DNA from: Rhizobacter sp. Root1238
Lineage (GTDB): Bacteria; Pseudomonadota; Gammaproteobacteria; Burkholderiales; Burkholderiaceae_C
NCBI RefSeq assembly: GCF_001425825.1
Contig: NZ_LMDM01000027.1
Coordinates: 1 to 50,779, forward strand
DNA length: 50,779 nucleotides
Direction of reading: 5' to 3'
Shown: in pieces, positions 8,272 through 50,368 of the stretch
Numbering within the stretch: position 1 is the stretch's first letter
Layout of the letters: each line of letters opens with the position of its first letter
Position numbers and translations under genes: made by a program
Notes under the pieces: generated by a model
Database searches by the model: none
What the model saw: only the letters and a program-made list of their open reading frames with translations
Told to the model about the DNA's origin: nothing

Positions 8272-9843
8272 ATGAAGAGCTTTCTCAATCTCAAGATCGG
8301 CGTGCGCCTCGCGGTGGCCTTCGCCTTCGTGCTCGTGCTGCTCGCGGCCGTCGTCGGCGCCGGCCTGCAACGGCTGACCGACCTGCGCGACCAGCTGAAC
8401 CTGGTCGTGGACAACCGCTATCCGAAGGTGCTGCTCGCGGTCGACATCAAGAACGATGTCAATGCCATCGTGCGCAGCGTGCGCGCGATGCTGATCGACA
8501 AGGATGCGCAGAGCCTGCGCAAGACCGCAGCCGACCTCGCCGCGGCGCAGGGCCGGATCACCGAGTCCATCGACGGGCTCGATCGCACGCTGCAGGCGCC
8601 CGAGACGCGGCGCATCCTCGCCGACGTGAAGGAATCTCGCGCGGTTTTCGTCGCCGACCAGCAGGCCTTCAAGGACCTGCTCGCCGCCGGCAACAACGAC
8701 GCGGCCGTCGAGCTGGTGCTCGGCAAGATGCGCAAGGACCAGCACAGCTACCAATCGGCGCTCGACGCGCTGCTCGCGGAGCTGGGCCGCCAGTTCAAGG
8801 ACGCGGGCGAAGCGGGGAACACCGCGTATCAGGTCGGCCGGACCGTGATGCTCGTGCTCGGTGCCGCGGCGATCGGCCTGGCGGTGCTGATGGCCTGGAT
8901 CGTCACGCGCTCGATCACGCGTCCGATCGGCCGTGCGGTGCAGGTGGCGCAGCGCGTCGCTTCCGGTGACCTCGGCTCCGACATCCAGGTCGACACGAAG
9001 GACGAGACCGGGCAGTTGCTGCAGGCGCTGAAGGAGATGAATGCCAGCCTGCTGCGCATCGTCGCCGAGGTGCGGCAGAGCAGCGACGGCATCGCCACCG
9101 GCTCCGGCCAGATCGCGATGGGCAACCAGGACCTGAGCCAGCGCACCGAAGAACAGGCGTCGAACCTGCAGCAGACGGCGGCCTCGATGGAACAGCTGAC
9201 CGGCACCGTTCGCAACAACGCCGACACCGCCCGCACCGCGAGCGAAGTGGCCGATGCGGCGCGCCGCGTGGCCGCCGAAGGTGGCGAGGTGGTGGAGCGG
9301 GTCGTGCACACGATGGCCGAGATCGCCGAAGCCAGCCGGAAGATCGCCGACATCACCGGCGTGATCGACGGCATCGCGTTCCAGACCAACATCCTCGCGC
9401 TCAACGCCGCGGTGGAGGCGGCGCGGGCCGGCGAACAGGGCCGCGGCTTCGCGGTTGTGGCCGGCGAAGTGCGCACGCTCGCACAACGCAGCGCCCAAGC
9501 GGCCCGCGAGATCAAGGCCCTGATCGGCGACAGCTCGGGCAAGGTCGCGACCGGCGGCCGGCTGGTCGGCGATGCCGGCCGCACGATGACCGAGATCGTG
9601 TCGCAGGTGCGCCGCGTCAACGACATGCTGTCGGAGATCAGCAGCGCCACCGAGGAGCAGACGACCGGCATCGGCCAGGTCAACGACGCGGTGTTGCAGC
9701 TCGACCAGGTGACGCAGCAGAACGCGGCGCTGGTCGAGGAATCGGCGGCCGCCGCGGAGAGCCTGAAGCAACAGGCTGCGCGGCTGGTGAGTGCGGTGTC
9801 GGTGTTCCGGTTGGGAACGGCCGAGCGCGCGCTGCCGGCCTGA
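8272..9843 (+). CDS. Methyl-accepting chemotaxis protein
   Basis: 523 residues. The start at 8272 has GGAG six bases upstream. Topology is standard: TM1 about 10-31 (LAVAFAFVLVLLAAVVGAGL), a periplasmic four-helix-bundle sensor about 32-190, TM2 about 192-214 (VMLVLGAAAIGLAVLMAWIV), a HAMP linker about 215-268, then the cytoplasmic signalling hairpin. The highly conserved tip is present (IDGIAFQTNILALNAAVEAA followed by RAGEQGRGFAVVAGEVRTLA). The C-terminus ends in a short basic/hydrophobic tail without an NWETF-type CheR-docking pentapeptide. It acts as an inner-membrane receptor controlling CheA. The ligand is not predictable, because 4HB sensors bind diverse amino acids and aromatics. A sigma-28-like promoter ties its expression to the flagellar regulon. 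Confidence 0.95.
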   Translation: MKSFLNLKIGVRLAVAFAFVLVLLAAVVGAGLQRLTDLRDQLNLVVDNRYPKVLLAVDIKNDVNAIVRSVRAMLIDKDAQSLRKTAADLAAAQGRITESIDGLDRTLQAPETRRILADVKESRAVFVADQQAFKDLLAAGNNDAAVELVLGKMRKDQHSYQSALDALLAELGRQFKDAGEAGNTAYQVGRTVMLVLGAAAIGLAVLMAWIVTRSITRPIGRAVQVAQRVASGDLGSDIQVDTKDETGQLLQALKEMNASLLRIVAEVRQSSDGIATGSGQIAMGNQDLSQRTEEQASNLQQTAASMEQLTGTVRNNADTARTASEVADAARRVAAEGGEVVERVVHTMAEIAEASRKIADITGVIDGIAFQTNILALNAAVEAARAGEQGRGFAVVAGEVRTLAQRSAQAAREIKALIGDSSGKVATGGRLVGDAGRTMTEIVSQVRRVNDMLSEISSATEEQTTGIGQVNDAVLQLDQVTQQNAALVEESAAAAESLKQQAARLVSAVSVFRLGTAERALPA

Positions 9844-45675: not shown

Positions 45676-45924
45676 TCAAGGTCGCGATCTCGCGATGCTG
45701 ATCATCATCCAGATCAGCAGACCCAAGTGAATGGCGCCGATGACTGTCGCGCCCGGAGGCGGGAGTACGTAGGCCAGTCCCCAGACAGCAAGAGGCGCGC
45801 CCGCGAAGATTGGCAGGATCGAGATACTGCTCCGTCCCTCAGAGGCCAGTCGCTGAAGTGAGGACGCCGGCATCCAGACGATCCAAGTGAGCGTTGCGAT
45901 GATGAGAACCTGAAGATGCGTCAT
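45676..45924 (-). CDS. Small hydrophobic membrane protein, unknown
   Basis: 82 residues. Predicted helices at about 4-22 (LQVLIIATLTWIVWMPASSL), about 35-54 (SILPIFAGAPLAVWGLAYVL) and about 57-78 (GATVIGAIHLGLLIWMMISI). The Shine-Dalgarno is weak. Not recognised; consistent hydrophobicity argues for a real gene. Confidence 0.5.
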   Translation of the reverse strand: MTHLQVLIIATLTWIVWMPASSLQRLASEGRSSISILPIFAGAPLAVWGLAYVLPPPGATVIGAIHLGLLIWMMISIARSRP

Positions 45925-46044: not shown

Positions 46045-46572
46045 CTATCTCCTTGTCCAAACCCGCATACGTTTGACCAAGAACACAGCCGTGTTGAACA
46101 CCAGCGTGCCCACGCTGATGAAGAATGCCGCGGCGAAAAGCAAAAGCCACAGCGACTGCGAAGTCATACCGCAGTTGACTTGATAGTCCTCGCACAGGTA
46201 TGCCTTTTCAGACGAAGTGACATCGTCACCCGCGCCATCCTCGTCACGACCATTGCGTCCCGCGGAGTGAATCTCGAACCCGAGCTTTGATGGTGTTCGC
46301 CGATAGATGTACAGATTCCCCCAAGCGTCGCGCGGTAGTCGCTCGAGCAAGCGTGGCGTGCCATGGACCAGGACATCAAGCCCCTGTGACTCGGTTGGAA
46401 GGTCGCCGTGATCTCCTCGATAGATGTCAACGGCCTGATAAAGATTCGCGATGTCTACTAAGCTCACCTGAAGTCGGTATCCACGGTGGTCGATGCTGGA
46501 CAAGGGACCGAGTATCGAGCATGCCAACGCTCCGAAGGCAACAACGGCAGCGACTAGTGTTGATCGGCGCAT
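46045..46572 (-). CDS. GspG-like (T2SS major pseudopilin fold) domain protein, atypical
   Basis: 175 residues from the ATG at 46572 (an upstream TTG at 46611 is less likely). After an N-terminal membrane segment (about 4-25) comes LVDIANLYQAVDIYRGDHGD, LPTESQGLDVL and PRDAWGNLYIYRRTPSKLGF, then EIHSAGRNGRDEDGAGDD. This is the calcium-loop end of T2SSG-type pseudopilins. The prepilin cleavage motif and FTLIE helix are absent. A second membrane helix lies at about 143-165 (LWLLLFAAAFFISVGTLVF). It is therefore a double-spanning protein displaying a pseudopilin globular domain. No secretion genes adjoin it except the PilP-like gene about 330 bp upstream. Confidence 0.65.
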   Translation of the reverse strand: MRRSTLVAAVVAFGALACSILGPLSSIDHRGYRLQVSLVDIANLYQAVDIYRGDHGDLPTESQGLDVLVHGTPRLLERLPRDAWGNLYIYRRTPSKLGFEIHSAGRNGRDEDGAGDDVTSSEKAYLCEDYQVNCGMTSQSLWLLLFAAAFFISVGTLVFNTAVFLVKRMRVWTRR

Positions 46573-46899
46573 GGAATGCCCACTGAATCTCGTTCTCCCC
46601 GTTAGGACCAAGCTGCCGCGCGTCGCCTGCTCGCCCCGGCGTGACTAACGGCAACATCGTAGCCGCTCATCGCTTACCGGAAGAGCGGTCGTTTCTGAAG
46701 GGCAGCCTCTGCCCGGCTACAGCCTTTCGAGCGCTGCAGCCGCCAGGTCCTGAGCGACCCTGAGTGACTTGGCCGAGCGCGCGAGGTCGAGCGCTCCAAA
46801 GCTGTCATTCAACGTTTGACATGAGCGGCACTGGCCAGCGTACCGGACGGCACCCTCACGACGGACACAGAGGCTCCCGCCTTCAGACCAACGGCGTTC
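46573..46899. other. Gene-free spacer between the GspG-like and PilP-like genes
   Basis: 327 bp without a convincing gene. It contains GGGCAG-cct-CTGCCC (46700-46714), and GTAGCCG / CGGCTAC arms enclose roughly the same area (46661-46721). These look like degenerate structured repeats. Confidence 0.5.
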
Positions 46900-47280
46900 T
46901 CAGTTCCTTGGGAACTCCACGAACTGCTCGACCCATTCACCATTTCGTTCAACCACTTGTCTCAGGACAATGACCCGCTTGTCGATCTTCACGATCTTCC
47001 CGGTGTTCTCGCCCATATAGTCGCCGAGACTGAGGTGATGCACTGTTCCCCGCTCGTCCTGAATCAGCACGACTTCCCGGCCACGCTGGGTGACCGAACC
47101 GACAAACCTCAAGCAATCGAGAGTTACCGTGTCTTGAAGTGCGCCGAACGAACCTGGACCATCGAGCTGAGCCGGCTCATTGGGTTGACGTTGAAACCGC
47201 ACGCATGCGGTTGAAGTCACCGGAACGACCAGTGTGCTCAAGCAGGCGAGGAGGATTGCAATGTGAAGCACGGCGTTCAA
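46900..47280 (-). CDS. Orphan PilP-like exported protein
   Basis: 126 residues. The TTG start at 47280 is preceded by GGAG at five bases. A signal sequence (VLHIAILLACLSTLVVPVTS) ends before Cys26, which is a poor lipobox. Residues about 50-124 match the PilP beta-sandwich pattern: LRFVGSVTQRGREVVLIQDE, VHHLSLGDYMGENTGKIVKI, IVLRQVVERNGEWVEQFVEF. Genuine PilP works with PilN/PilO/PilQ in type IV pili and is longer. None of those genes is here. Inferred: a detached paralogue. Confidence 0.65.
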   Translation of the reverse strand: MNAVLHIAILLACLSTLVVPVTSTACVRFQRQPNEPAQLDGPGSFGALQDTVTLDCLRFVGSVTQRGREVVLIQDERGTVHHLSLGDYMGENTGKIVKIDKRVIVLRQVVERNGEWVEQFVEFPRN

Positions 47281-48566: not shown

Positions 48567-48740
48567 TCATTCAGACTTGTTGCTTGCCACGAAGGCGAGG
48601 AGCAAACATAGCGCTGCGCCACAAATTGCCAATGCGTCGGCCCAGAGCGGTGTGTAGGCAGATAGCAATCTCTGACCGATCAACAGTACACAGGCCAGAA
48701 CTACCAACGCAATTCCAGCGGCGTTCATTCCGCTTTTCAT
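48567..48740 (-). CDS. 57-residue two-helix membrane protein, candidate immunity or partner protein
   Basis: MKSGMNAAGIALVVLACVLL begins the first helix (about 6-24) and LWADALAICGAALCLLLAFV the second (about 32-51), with a charged SNKSE tail. Its ATG overlaps the stop of the mini-RHS gene (ATGA), so synthesis is coupled. Not recognised. Position directly after an RHS-tip protein is what one expects of an immunity protein, but that is inference. Confidence 0.6.
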   Translation of the reverse strand: MKSGMNAAGIALVVLACVLLIGQRLLSAYTPLWADALAICGAALCLLLAFVASNKSE

Positions 48741-49291
48741 CTGACCTCGCACATCGGTGGCTTGATTTCGCAGTGACTCAACAACGGGCCCACTGCATAC
48801 CCCAAGGATCCTGCTGCTGTTGCAGGGTTGGTGAACACAGAAACACCTCTCCCAATTAGGCTCATGAGGCGGGTTCCAGCGCCAAGTCGCGTTGCAATCT
48901 CGGGCACCTGATTTGCGACAACATTCCCCGCTACGGCACCCCCGCCCTTGCCCACAACACCTATGCCAAGTATGCACATTGTGTCGTACCGCTTCACGCT
49001 CCCATAGTAGGGAGGTGGAATGCCGGCCGCTGCCATCGACTCAGCGCACAGTGAATCAGGAGACGTGTCGCAAATACCCGGCCGCCGCACCGTGACCACT
49101 GGGTCATAGCCATTGCCGGGGCGCCCATACGGCAGTCCGGCAGCTTCGTCCGCATTGGTCAAGAGCACATCCAATCCGTTGGGATCGATGTAGGAGAGTG
49201 GGTTGCCATTTACATAGGTCGCATGAGCGCCGCCTTGCAAAGCGACAAAGAGCGATGCTCCAAAGTACAGCTTCCTGGGCCACTTGTTCAC
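48737..49291 (-). CDS. Signal peptide fused directly to an RHS-core tip (mini-RHS effector-like protein)
   Basis: 184 residues. The GTG start has a perfect AGGAGG eight bases upstream. The signal peptide KLYFGASLFVALQGGAHA is followed immediately by TYVNGNPLSYIDPNGLDVLL. Y-V-x-N-x-P-x-x-x-x-D-P-x-G-L is the conserved end of the RHS repeat-associated core domain, the point where polymorphic toxin tips begin. The remaining ~145 residues contain a Cys-rich section (RRPGICDTSPDSLCAES), a Gly/Val membrane-like stretch (CILGIGVVGKGGGAVAGNVV) and a C-terminal CEIKPPMC. No toxin family is recognised. The RHS shell is completely missing. Confidence 0.7.
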   Translation of the reverse strand: MNKWPRKLYFGASLFVALQGGAHATYVNGNPLSYIDPNGLDVLLTNADEAAGLPYGRPGNGYDPVVTVRRPGICDTSPDSLCAESMAAAGIPPPYYGSVKRYDTMCILGIGVVGKGGGAVAGNVVANQVPEIATRLGAGTRLMSLIGRGVSVFTNPATAAGSLGYAVGPLLSHCEIKPPMCEVR

Positions 49292-49315
49292 GGGTCAATC
49301 CTCCTGAATGATTAT

Positions 49316-50368
49316 TTATTGCTTGGCCGTTCTGGCCAGCCGAATTCTCTCGCGGTATGCAGCTTCCATGGCGGGTGTTGGCGGCCTGTAGCCGAGGGCT
49401 TTGGCCTTGGTGCCCCAATAGGCCCACCCGCTTTCGATCTGCTCGTATCGTGGCCGCATGTTCACGGGGATGTCGGACGGCTGCGGGTACTTCTCCACAA
49501 ACAAGTGTTGCCGGAGCCCGAGATACCCGAAGTAGGCATGGACCATGGCGACCACGTCTTTCGGGTAGTGGTCCACCAGCAGCAGAGCAAGCTTGACGCG
49601 CGCCTCCTCGCCGTCGGCGGACCTGTCGCTTTCGTATTTGTCCAGCAGCGGCTCGGCGATGACGGCCACGGTTTCCTTCTTCGTCAGCGGCTGAAGATAG
49701 ATGCCGCTCGCGAGCGCATCTGCCGTCAGGCTGGGGAACTGCTTCTTCTGCCACTCATCATCCGCCCAACCACCTCCGCTGGTGGTCTCGACGCCATACC
49801 ACTGCCCATTGTCGCCCTTGAATTTCACGTAGATGTGGGCGGGAGCCTTCACGAGGGTGACCGGGATCCCCAGCTTCTGTCCGAGGATGACGAACAAAAT
49901 GGGCATCGAGACGCAGTTGCCTTTGTGGGTGCGCAGGTAGACGGAGAGCAGCTTCGCGCTCGGATTGCGATCGTCTTCCAGGTTGTACACGTACGGCAGC
50001 CTGGCGCTCAGAAGTGGTGGCTGATAGAGGTAGTCCCGCAACACCTTGAACTTGGCGAGATTGCTGGCGCCGAGCGGGAAGGCAGCGCGGACCTCCCCGG
50101 CCATGTCGCCCAGTTGTTTGAGGACGGCGGCCTTGTCGATCGATGGGTCGAGGATCTTGTCGACGGTCAGCTTGATGACCGCGAAGTCCATCTGAGCTTC
50201 CGGCTGCTGGAGCATCGAGCGCACGGTCTCGAAATTCGAATCATAGACACCGGTGCGACGCGCCTGGGCCGTGGGTGACGCAAGCACCAGCACCAACAAA
50301 ATCAAGAGCAGCAGCGTTGTCGGCCACTGCTTGATTGACGAAGGAAAAAGGGTCGGATTGGTCGTCAT
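49316..50368 (-). CDS. Exported transglutaminase-like (SirB1/Transglut_core2-type) protein
   Basis: 350 residues with signal peptide/anchor (TLLLLILLVLVLASPTAQA). The papain-like triad is readable: Cys152 in LRTHKGNCVSMPILFVILGQ, His178 in VTLVKAPAHIYVKFKG and an acidic residue at Glu194 in WYGVETTSGGGW. The DFAVIKLTVDKILDPSID block before the catalytic domain resembles SirB1/YchA-like proteins. A helical repeat-like C-terminus follows. The small 24-bp gap to the mini-RHS gene suggests one transcript. Possible role: protein maturation or a cell-wall/protein amide reaction in the periplasm; substrate unknown. Confidence 0.85.
   Translation of the reverse strand: MTTNPTLFPSSIKQWPTTLLLLILLVLVLASPTAQARRTGVYDSNFETVRSMLQQPEAQMDFAVIKLTVDKILDPSIDKAAVLKQLGDMAGEVRAAFPLGASNLAKFKVLRDYLYQPPLLSARLPYVYNLEDDRNPSAKLLSVYLRTHKGNCVSMPILFVILGQKLGIPVTLVKAPAHIYVKFKGDNGQWYGVETTSGGGWADDEWQKKQFPSLTADALASGIYLQPLTKKETVAVIAEPLLDKYESDRSADGEEARVKLALLLVDHYPKDVVAMVHAYFGYLGLRQHLFVEKYPQPSDIPVNMRPRYEQIESGWAYWGTKAKALGYRPPTPAMEAAYRERIRLARTAKQ

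What the first reader, a model, noticed from the sequence alone, without database searches (positions are those of the whole stretch)
48567..50368. Mini-RHS: signal peptide joined straight to an RHS-core terminus, with a coupled two-helix protein and a transglutaminase-like gene
The 184-residue protein starts with a Sec signal and continues directly with YVNGNPLSYIDPNGLD, the conserved boundary normally found after a >1000-residue RHS shell. It is followed with ATGA overlap by a 57-residue membrane protein and preceded after 24 bp by a transglutaminase-like exported protein. The start has a perfect AGGAGG, so it does not look like a dead fragment. It may be a free-standing RHS tip exported by Sec, with an immunity protein.
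Basis: partly seen in the sequence, partly recalled or inferred. Interest (0 to 1): 0.7.

Follow-up and report, generated by a model that had tools for sequence, protein, structure and literature searches.

The report
Shell-less RHS toxin with transglutaminase partner
A short bacterial protein that looks like a stray fragment of a giant RHS toxin belongs to a recurring three-gene set: an exported transglutaminase-like enzyme, a small exported toxin-like protein with a swappable end, and a small protein that probably protects the producer.

Summary
A 350-aa exported transglutaminase-like protein (TG) is followed after 24 bp by a 184-aa protein (signal peptide, RHS-core terminus, 144-aa tip) and, by ATGA overlap, a 57-aa two-helix protein. 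It is not a dead fragment. A TG-family scan kept 80 loci; 75 carry an RHS-core-terminus frame, in 65 of 79 scorable loci just downstream on the same strand, against 0 of 79 on the other strand and 0 of 69 further downstream. Where located, the core usually starts right after a signal-peptidase-like Ala. Tips are polymorphic: 84 fall into 56 clusters, including colicin E5, EC869-type nuclease, Tlde1, NlpC/P60 and TseH. Some downstream genes are Imm26, SUKH, Imm32 or Imm58. In three Rhizobacter loci TG is 85-90% identical while tips are unrelated. I read this as a Sec-exported, shell-less RHS polymorphic toxin system with a dedicated TG-TPR partner, which my literature searches did not find described. 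The window's own tip and 57-aa gene have no detected homologue, so their activity is inferred. TG chemistry and export beyond the periplasm are open.

The parts
49316..50368 (-). Exported transglutaminase-like protein with helical (TPR-like) C-terminal half, 350 aa; candidate triad C152, H178, E194
   Evidence: Pfam Transglut_core2 E 9e-12; C152, H178, E194 invariant in 67 of 67 aligned homologues (C and H partly favoured by the search patterns); AlphaFold2 pLDDT 91, pTM 0.85; TPR-type sequence matches at profile positions about 225-300
49300..49305 (-). Shine-Dalgarno AGGAGG, 8 nt before the GTG start
   Evidence: read directly
48737..49291 (-). Mini-RHS protein, 184 aa: signal peptide + RHS-core terminus + polymorphic tip
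   Evidence: family evidence
49220..49291 (-). Signal peptide, residues 1-24 (cleavage expected after AHA)
   Evidence: sequence; Ala directly before the core in 66 of 71 located cores of the family; judged by hydropathy and AxA only
49172..49219 (-). Short RHS-core terminus TYVNGNPLSYIDPNGL, residues 25-40, lacking the usual first DPIGL half
   Evidence: TIGR03696 sub-threshold match; similar short form in both Dyella minis of L143
48740..49171 (-). Variable C-terminal tip, residues 41-184; Gly/Ala-rich hydrophobic C-terminal part; no known family
   Evidence: Pfam and NCBIfam none at E<=0.01; residues 42-184 have no match at E<=0.001 in 398 other genomes of the order
48567..48740 (-). 57-aa protein with two predicted membrane helices, candidate immunity protein, ATGA-coupled
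   Evidence: the same gene position holds Imm26, SUKH, Imm32 or Imm58 proteins in some relatives; no match at E<=0.001 in 298 other genomes of the family

Best explanation
The locus is one copy of a widespread polymorphic toxin-immunity module of three genes: TG, mini-RHS, immunity. Shown by sequence comparison: this TG subfamily and a signal-peptide-bearing RHS-core terminus travel together; the tip behind the DPxG boundary is exchanged; the next gene in some loci belongs to a known immunity family. Inferred: the mini-RHS enters the periplasm by Sec, its mature N-terminus being the RHS-core terminus itself, and is then released, most likely by the type II secretion system, to act on neighbouring bacteria. 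Inferred: the exported TG-TPR protein binds the conserved core segment of the mini-RHS and processes it (or joins it to something), which is why TG and core stay linked while tips turn over. For the window, inferred: the hydrophobic tip acts on the envelope or inner membrane and the 57-aa two-helix protein protects the producer there.
For: Linkage: 65 of 79 scorable TG loci have the core in a frame within about 1.2 kb downstream on the same strand; other strand of the same stretch 0 of 79; 2.5-3.8 kb downstream 0 of the 69 loci that have DNA there; upstream same strand 7 of the 77 with DNA there, six of these having no downstream copy; 75 of 80 anywhere in the locus; 0 of 12 loci of other TG homologues, 1.5 kb flanks. 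It is the only frequent neighbour found: 46 loci in one BLAST cluster, next family 5. Coupling: gap -10 to +77 nt in the 55 loci scored strictly. Export: Ala at -1 of the core in 66 of 71 located cores against 1 of 13 long RHS frames. Polymorphism: 56 clusters among 84 tips; of 29 locus pairs with TG identity >=70% only 2 have homologous tips while mean core identity is 0.75; TG and core identities correlate (rho 0.38, 0 of 500 permutations as high). Tip exchange: TG 85-90%, signal+core 60-72%, tips 40-45% nt in three Rhizobacter loci. Toxin domains. Immunity families. Tips related to those of longer RHS frames: L113 with L060, L121 with L049. T2SS: GspD over the cut-off in 23 of 25 module-bearing genomes, and a GspD-type secretin beside the module in L138, L140, L122.
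Against: No experiment. The window's tip and 57-aa gene have no detected homologue and the tip model is useless (pLDDT 38). Signal peptides were judged by hydropathy and AxA sites only; a looser cleavage rule also fits 8 of 13 long RHS frames, so only the Ala is discriminating. C152 and H178 invariance is partly built in by the search patterns; E194 is not. Nuclease-type tips need entry into a cytosol, which Sec plus T2SS alone does not explain. Five of 80 TG loci lack a core hit, of which L169 runs off the contig and L093 has only 806 nt after TG. Three downstream frames are cut short (L119, L134, L171). In the window's genome 3 of 6 minis have no TG in the fetched 1.5 kb flanks. Two of 25 genomes have no GspD over the cut-off. 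Only a minority of tips and of neighbours match a named family. TG-core correlation was not corrected for host phylogeny.
Confidence: 0.75

Rival explanations
1. Split RHS: the mini-RHS is the separately made tip of an RHS toxin and must assemble in trans with a tipless RHS/YD shell, with TG helping or covalently joining the parts.
For: In L140, L138 and L122 a YD/RHS gene stops just where the mini's core begins (ends after ...LNARYMDP.LGR[FY]VP) and lies directly before TG or the mini. Homologues of the L140 shell occur in 7 of 80 loci, one (L172) a 43-aa fragment. TG lies between shell and tip genes in L138 and L140.
Against: The other 73 of 80 loci have no match to that shell in the fetched flanks (E<=1e-8, one query); a distant shell in the same genome was not systematically excluded. 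Long RHS frames of the same genus carry their own C-terminal regions.
Confidence: 0.12
2. Secreted lytic enzymes or predation factors without a toxin-immunity role, exported by T2SS with a vestigial RHS remnant.
For: Several tips resemble peptidoglycan hydrolases or transpeptidases (Tlde1, NlpC/P60, TseH); GspD is present in 23 of 25 genomes.
Against: Nuclease-type tips (colicin E5, EC869-like) and immunity families downstream do not fit; neither does tip polymorphism.
Confidence: 0.08
3. Fragments of displaced RHS C-termini that by chance gained a start and signal-like sequence, mostly non-functional.
For: The window's core is very short and sub-threshold. The genome has an RHS frame on contig C26 that ends soon after RYTQSDPIGLA. 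L119, L134 and L171 frames are cut short.
Against: Recurrent architecture with TG in many taxa, ribosome-binding site and close coupling, TG-core co-variation.
Confidence: 0.03

Closest known systems
RHS polymorphic toxins delivered by T6SS (e.g. Photorhabdus Rhs1, PMC8636562)
   Same: RHS-core terminus with DPxG-type motif before a variable C-terminal toxin; neighbouring immunity gene (general knowledge)
   Different: No YD-repeat shell, no T6SS N-terminal part; signal peptide instead; partner TG. The paper places the Rhs1 C-terminal cleavage site after two DPLGL motifs 17 residues apart (passages seen); a first Asp was recognised in 70 of 84 minis, the window keeps only the second
MafB/MafI toxins of Neisseria (PMC4287609)
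   Same: Signal peptide, conserved N-terminal part, variable C-terminal toxin, immunity gene directly downstream (passages seen)
   Different: MafB carries DUF1020 rather than an RHS terminus; no TG partner appears in the passages seen
Inactive transglutaminase domains in RHS polymorphic toxins (Zhang et al. 2012, PMC3482391 section 19)
   Same: Transglutaminase domain associated with signal peptides and RHS toxins
   Different: There the domain is fused ahead of the RHS array and has lost one or more triad residues (section read); here it is a separate gene with C, H and E kept
Bacterial teneurin-like proteins (PMC13018210)
   Same: Sec signals on shell-type toxins with polymorphic C-termini (passages seen)
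   Different: They have the full shell
Menin (TG-like domain plus TPR, recalled), best Foldseek match of the TG model
   Same: Overall architecture (E 9.5e-4, TM-score 0.37 by query length)
   Different: Weak match; eukaryotic scaffold protein; no function inferred from it

Membership tests
RHS toxin (shell type) | YD-repeat beta-barrel shell | tested here: not met
   the window ORF is 184 aa and its RHS match covers residues 24-40 only
RHS toxin (shell type) | RHS-associated core terminus before the tip | tested here: met
   TIGR03696 in 80 of 84 family members at E<=0.01; window itself sub-threshold, 13.8 bits
RHS toxin (shell type) | N-terminal PAAR/T6SS module | tested here: not met
   signal peptide instead; no Pfam hit at E<=1 in the window protein; VipB absent in 7 of 25 module-bearing genomes
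Polymorphic toxin system | constant N-terminal part with exchangeable C-terminal toxin domain | tested here: met
   56 tip clusters in 84; tip exchange behind the boundary
Polymorphic toxin system | cognate immunity gene directly downstream | tested here: met
   family level only: Imm26 4, SUKH-type, Imm32 and Imm58 1 each among 74 scanned genes; the window gene matches no family
Polymorphic toxin system | toxicity and specific neutralisation | not testable with these tools
   needs expression assays
MafB-like secreted toxin | DUF1020 domain | tested here: not met
   no Pfam match in the window protein; DUF1020 not among the 15 families found in 84 members
Lipoprotein toxin (SitA-like, recalled) | lipobox with Cys at +1 | tested here: not met
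   residue after AHA is Thr in the window
Transglutaminase-like protein | Cys-His-Asp/Glu active site | tested here: met
   C152, H178, E194 in 67 of 67 aligned, with the caveat that patterns include the Cys and His stretches; activity untested
T2SS substrate | secretion dependent on the Gsp system | not testable with these tools
   only circumstantial: GspD in 23 of 25 genomes, secretin beside 3 loci

The most novel reading that the evidence does not exclude
The transglutaminase-like TPR protein is a dedicated maturation enzyme that recognises the RHS-core terminus as a tag and covalently transfers the toxin tip, in trans, onto an acceptor such as a tipless RHS shell, the cell surface or a secretion pilus. 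The RHS boundary would then be a portable ligation or cleavage tag, and these would be modular toxins assembled after export.
Probability: 0.12. Interest if true: 0.92.

Novelty: new variant of a known kind. Interest (0 to 1): 0.74.

Why it matters
RHS toxins are understood as cages that hide the toxin; here the cage is gone but the boundary peptide is kept, now as the N-terminus of an exported toxin-like protein and linked to one enzyme subfamily. That separates what the boundary does from what the shell does and gives a defined two-gene system in which to test both. It also suggests that at least some short proteins that look like RHS debris are intact genes. The TG gene is a genomic marker for new toxin-immunity candidates: most of the 84 tips collected here match no known family.

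Tried and rejected
Dead RHS fragment: rejected for the family. T6SS as a general route: not favoured, VipB in 18 of 25 genomes only. A fourth conserved gene: none found, next most frequent neighbour family in 5 loci. Homologues of the window tip and of the 57-aa gene: none found. An earlier search with the whole mini in 60 genomes gave five genomes with weak matches; the one covering the tip (L016, 29% identity, frame with a stop) and L015 did not hold up with the tip alone (best E 0.64). Structure of the window mini-RHS: single-sequence model useless. PDB profile search with TG matched mainly designed TPR proteins.

Tip type against neighbour location is post hoc and small: nuclease-like tips L162 and L126 (over cut-off) and L148, L141, L101 (weak, E 0.013-0.046, below cut-off) have soluble neighbours; peptidoglycan-type tips L103, L112, L110 (over cut-off) and L047 (below cut-off) have signal-peptide or membrane neighbours. 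L153 (Ntox10, soluble neighbour) and L116 (M91, signal-peptide neighbour) were left out because the target is not clear. Forty of the 84 members were scanned one by one, chosen partly by neighbour class.

Rows dropped: ten of 84 downstream genes were not (one mini had no next ORF in the fetched DNA; nine skipped by hand because the gene call looked unreliable or, for L120, the next ORF was TG itself). Of 80 loci, 66 passed my length and frame filter for TG; 62 of these plus five others made the 67-row alignment (L093, L094, L115, L146 left out, L094 being a duplicate of L076). In one search the core start was not located in 13 of 84 minis, and three of the five non-Ala cases are misplacements by the pattern. 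In one search the second motif of at least L118 and L154 was misplaced. In one search eleven of the 12 control loci are distant or unlinked TG homologues and L079 is a truncated close one.

Full report
What is there. On the minus strand of the window lie, in order, a 350-aa TG-like gene (50368-49316), a 184-aa gene (49291-48737) and a 57-aa gene (48740-48567), spaced by 24 bp and by an ATGA overlap, with AGGAGG 8 nt before the GTG start. The 184-aa protein reads as a signal peptide ending AHA, then TYVNGNPLSYIDPNGL, then a 144-aa tip. Pfam finds nothing in it at E<=1 and TIGR03696 only a 13.8-bit match to its last 17 positions. The window is a complete contig of a 6.52-Mb genome. Third-position GC is 0.57-0.63 in the mini and 57-aa genes and 0.80 in TG, in a window of 67.8% GC; but three neighbouring genes are as low (0.62-0.65), so this says little about the module itself. 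The host genus is inferred to be Rhizobacter: loci of two same-genus genomes are 100% identical in DNA to loci of Rhizobacter sp. SG703 and OV335 (names).

More copies in the same genome and genus. A search for the RHS terminus shows frames from 185 to 2747 aa in this genome among the 22 of 26 matches with E<0.05. Among them are other short frames with a hydrophobic N-terminus followed by the RHS terminus, on contigs C8, C45, C34 and C49 (two). TG relatives lie directly upstream at C8 and C45, and at loci of sister genomes G005 and G008; two sister loci (L047, L048) have a truncated or missing TG. With the window that makes six minis in this genome, three with TG upstream. The pattern TG, mini, small envelope-type protein also appears in two other genera of the family (L076, L078).

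Independent test of the linkage. A profile of seven TG proteins, all taken from loci with a mini, was used to scan a collection of 84,980 species genomes; 158 stretches matched a pattern, 81 encode a relative, the best 80 were kept. By their titles they are mostly beta-, gamma- and alphaproteobacteria, but also records labelled Archangiaceae, Mariprofundaceae, Calditrichia, Zixiibacteriota, Bacteroidia and Rhodothermia. A strict regular expression found minis in 55. A profile HMM of the core found a core in 65 of 79 scorable loci in the 1.2 kb after TG on the same strand. Controls: other strand of that stretch 0 of 79; 2.5-3.8 kb downstream 0 of the 69 loci with any DNA there (64 with the full stretch); upstream same strand 7 of the 77 with DNA there, in which the order is reversed or doubled. 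Over whole loci 75 of 80 have a core hit, two of them on the other strand (L136, L159); the five without are L093, L115, L168, L169 and L172. The HMM was trained on most of these minis, so recall on those is built in; the controls and the loci first missed are not. Twelve loci of other TG homologues, with 1.5 kb flanks, gave no core hit. No other gene family was found in more than 5 of the 80 loci.

Anatomy of the family. In the 55 strictly scored loci mini length is 143-312 aa and the TG-mini gap -10 to +77 nt. Where the core start was located, Ala stands immediately before it in 66 of 71 minis, against 1 of 13 long RHS frames from the genus; a looser small-residue rule fits 66 of 71 and 8 of 13. 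This is as expected if signal peptidase cuts right before the core. A few groups (Mesorhizobium, Calditrichia, Bacteroidia, Rhodothermia) have about 20-45 further residues between signal and core. A second D..G motif was found in 84 of 84 by a loose rule that misplaced it in at least two; the first Asp was recognised in 70 of 84. Several of the other 14 are pattern misses; the window, both L143 minis and L159 lack the first half. The Photorhabdus Rhs1 paper places the C-terminal autocleavage site after two DPLGL motifs and names the Asp of the second as catalytic (PMC8636562, passages). Whether a mini without the shell can cleave itself is unknown.

Polymorphism and toxin domains. Eighty-four tips fall into 56 clusters, 40 of them singletons, the window among them. 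In three Rhizobacter loci the TG gene is 85-90% identical at DNA level, signal plus core 60-72%, tips 40-45%, that is without recognisable relation. Over 63 loci, TG and core identity correlate (rho 0.38, 0 of 500 permutations as high), whereas among the 29 locus pairs with TG at least 70% identical only 2 have homologous tips; host phylogeny was not controlled for. Pfam families among 84 members at E<=0.01: Tlde1 3, Ntox10 2, Peptidase_M91 2, and one each of TseH, EC869-like CDI nuclease, NlpC/P60, Ntox23, colicin E5 and others, some below their cut-offs. Two mini tips resemble C-terminal regions of longer RHS frames (L113-L060 42% over 160 aa; L121-L049 32% over 108 aa).

Immunity. Of 83 minis with a next ORF, 55 have one that is membrane, lipoprotein-like or signal-bearing by a crude hydropathy rule. 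Among 74 such genes scanned, Imm26 occurs 4 times and SUKH-type, Imm32 and Imm58 once each. Where a tip is recognised, the neighbour's location fits: soluble beside nuclease-like tips, exported or membrane-bound beside peptidoglycan-type tips; this was noticed after the fact, with five strong cases and four weak ones. By this logic the window's two-helix neighbour points to a membrane- or envelope-acting tip.

The TG partner. Sixty-seven aligned TGs share G150, N151, C152, S154, M155, P156, P176, H178, E194 and Y224. The scan selected for stretches containing the Cys or the His, so only E194 and Y224 are free of that bias. AlphaFold2 gives a confident model (pLDDT 91) with a TG-like part and a helical C-terminal half; the profile of the latter matches TPR proteins, mostly designed ones. 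Foldseek's best matches include menin, S. pyogenes TglA, a TGase and the periplasmic domain of TgpA, only one of them (menin) at E<=0.001. A protein acting on the constant core is the simplest reading of the linkage; protease, ligase or chaperone cannot be told apart here.

Route out of the cell. GspD is over the curated cut-off in 23 of 25 module-bearing genomes, the T6SS protein VipB in 18 of 25. The 25 were chosen by me: the window's genome and 24 named isolates. In Mesorhizobium L138, L140 and L122 a GspD-type secretin lies beside the module on the same strand (in L122 only the N-terminal part of the frame is open), and an RHS/YD gene stops where the mini's core would begin. These loci suggest a split RHS with a neighbouring T2SS gene in that lineage; for the rest T2SS is only plausible.

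Literature. Searches combining transglutaminase, Rhs, polymorphic toxin, signal peptide, type II secretion, orphan or truncated Rhs and TPR listed no paper whose title or shown start of abstract describes this module; some searches listed only part of their matches (20 of 84, 15 of 34, 10 of 23). The nearest is Zhang et al. 2012 (section 19 read; other passages), which describes fused, inactive TG domains before RHS arrays. MafB (passages) is the closest in working principle. Two further papers were looked at by passages without finding the module. The library holds only open-licence papers, so absence there is weak evidence.

Verdict. A real, conserved, apparently undescribed variant of polymorphic toxins; toxicity, immunity, TG chemistry and export remain to be shown.

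Noticed in passing
window 46900-47280 (-) and 46045-46611 (-): About 1.3-2.5 kb beyond the module lie a single-domain PilP-like protein (Pfam PilP 1e-15) and a GspG-like protein (T2SSG 5e-13) that by eye lacks the usual pseudopilin start and has a C-terminal membrane helix; with an 82-aa membrane ORF at 45676-45924 they could be orphan envelope or immunity genes.
   Followed up: partly
L138, L140, L122 (Mesorhizobium): Gene order tipless RHS/YD shell, TG, mini-RHS, then a type II secretin in L138 and L140; in L122 shell, mini, neighbour gene, TG, secretin.
   Followed up: partly
L112, L143, L151, L165: Second mini-RHS in the same locus, with a core like the first, suggesting duplication or accumulation of tips.
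   Followed up: no
L175 (C34), L176 and L177 (C49) of the window's genome: Minis with no TG close by; the C49:5187 mini has a close relative in sister genome G008 (L061, tip 95% identical), also without a TG hit.
   Followed up: partly
L173:6966-8849 and 9277-9753 (contig C26): Signal-peptide RHS frame that ends soon after RYTQSDPIGLA, followed by a protein that looks SUKH-like by eye: a tipless RHS with orphan immunity, or decay.
   Followed up: no
L010 (contig C50:35767): Intermediate form: signal peptide plus roughly 120 residues of RHS C-terminal region plus tip (322-aa frame), suggesting a graded series from full shell to mini.
   Followed up: no
L103 and L093 downstream flanks: Related ankyrin-like lipoprotein-type genes (by eye) lie after a TG in Caenimonas (L093, no mini found) and further downstream in Rhizobacter L103; possibly orphan immunity.
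   Followed up: no
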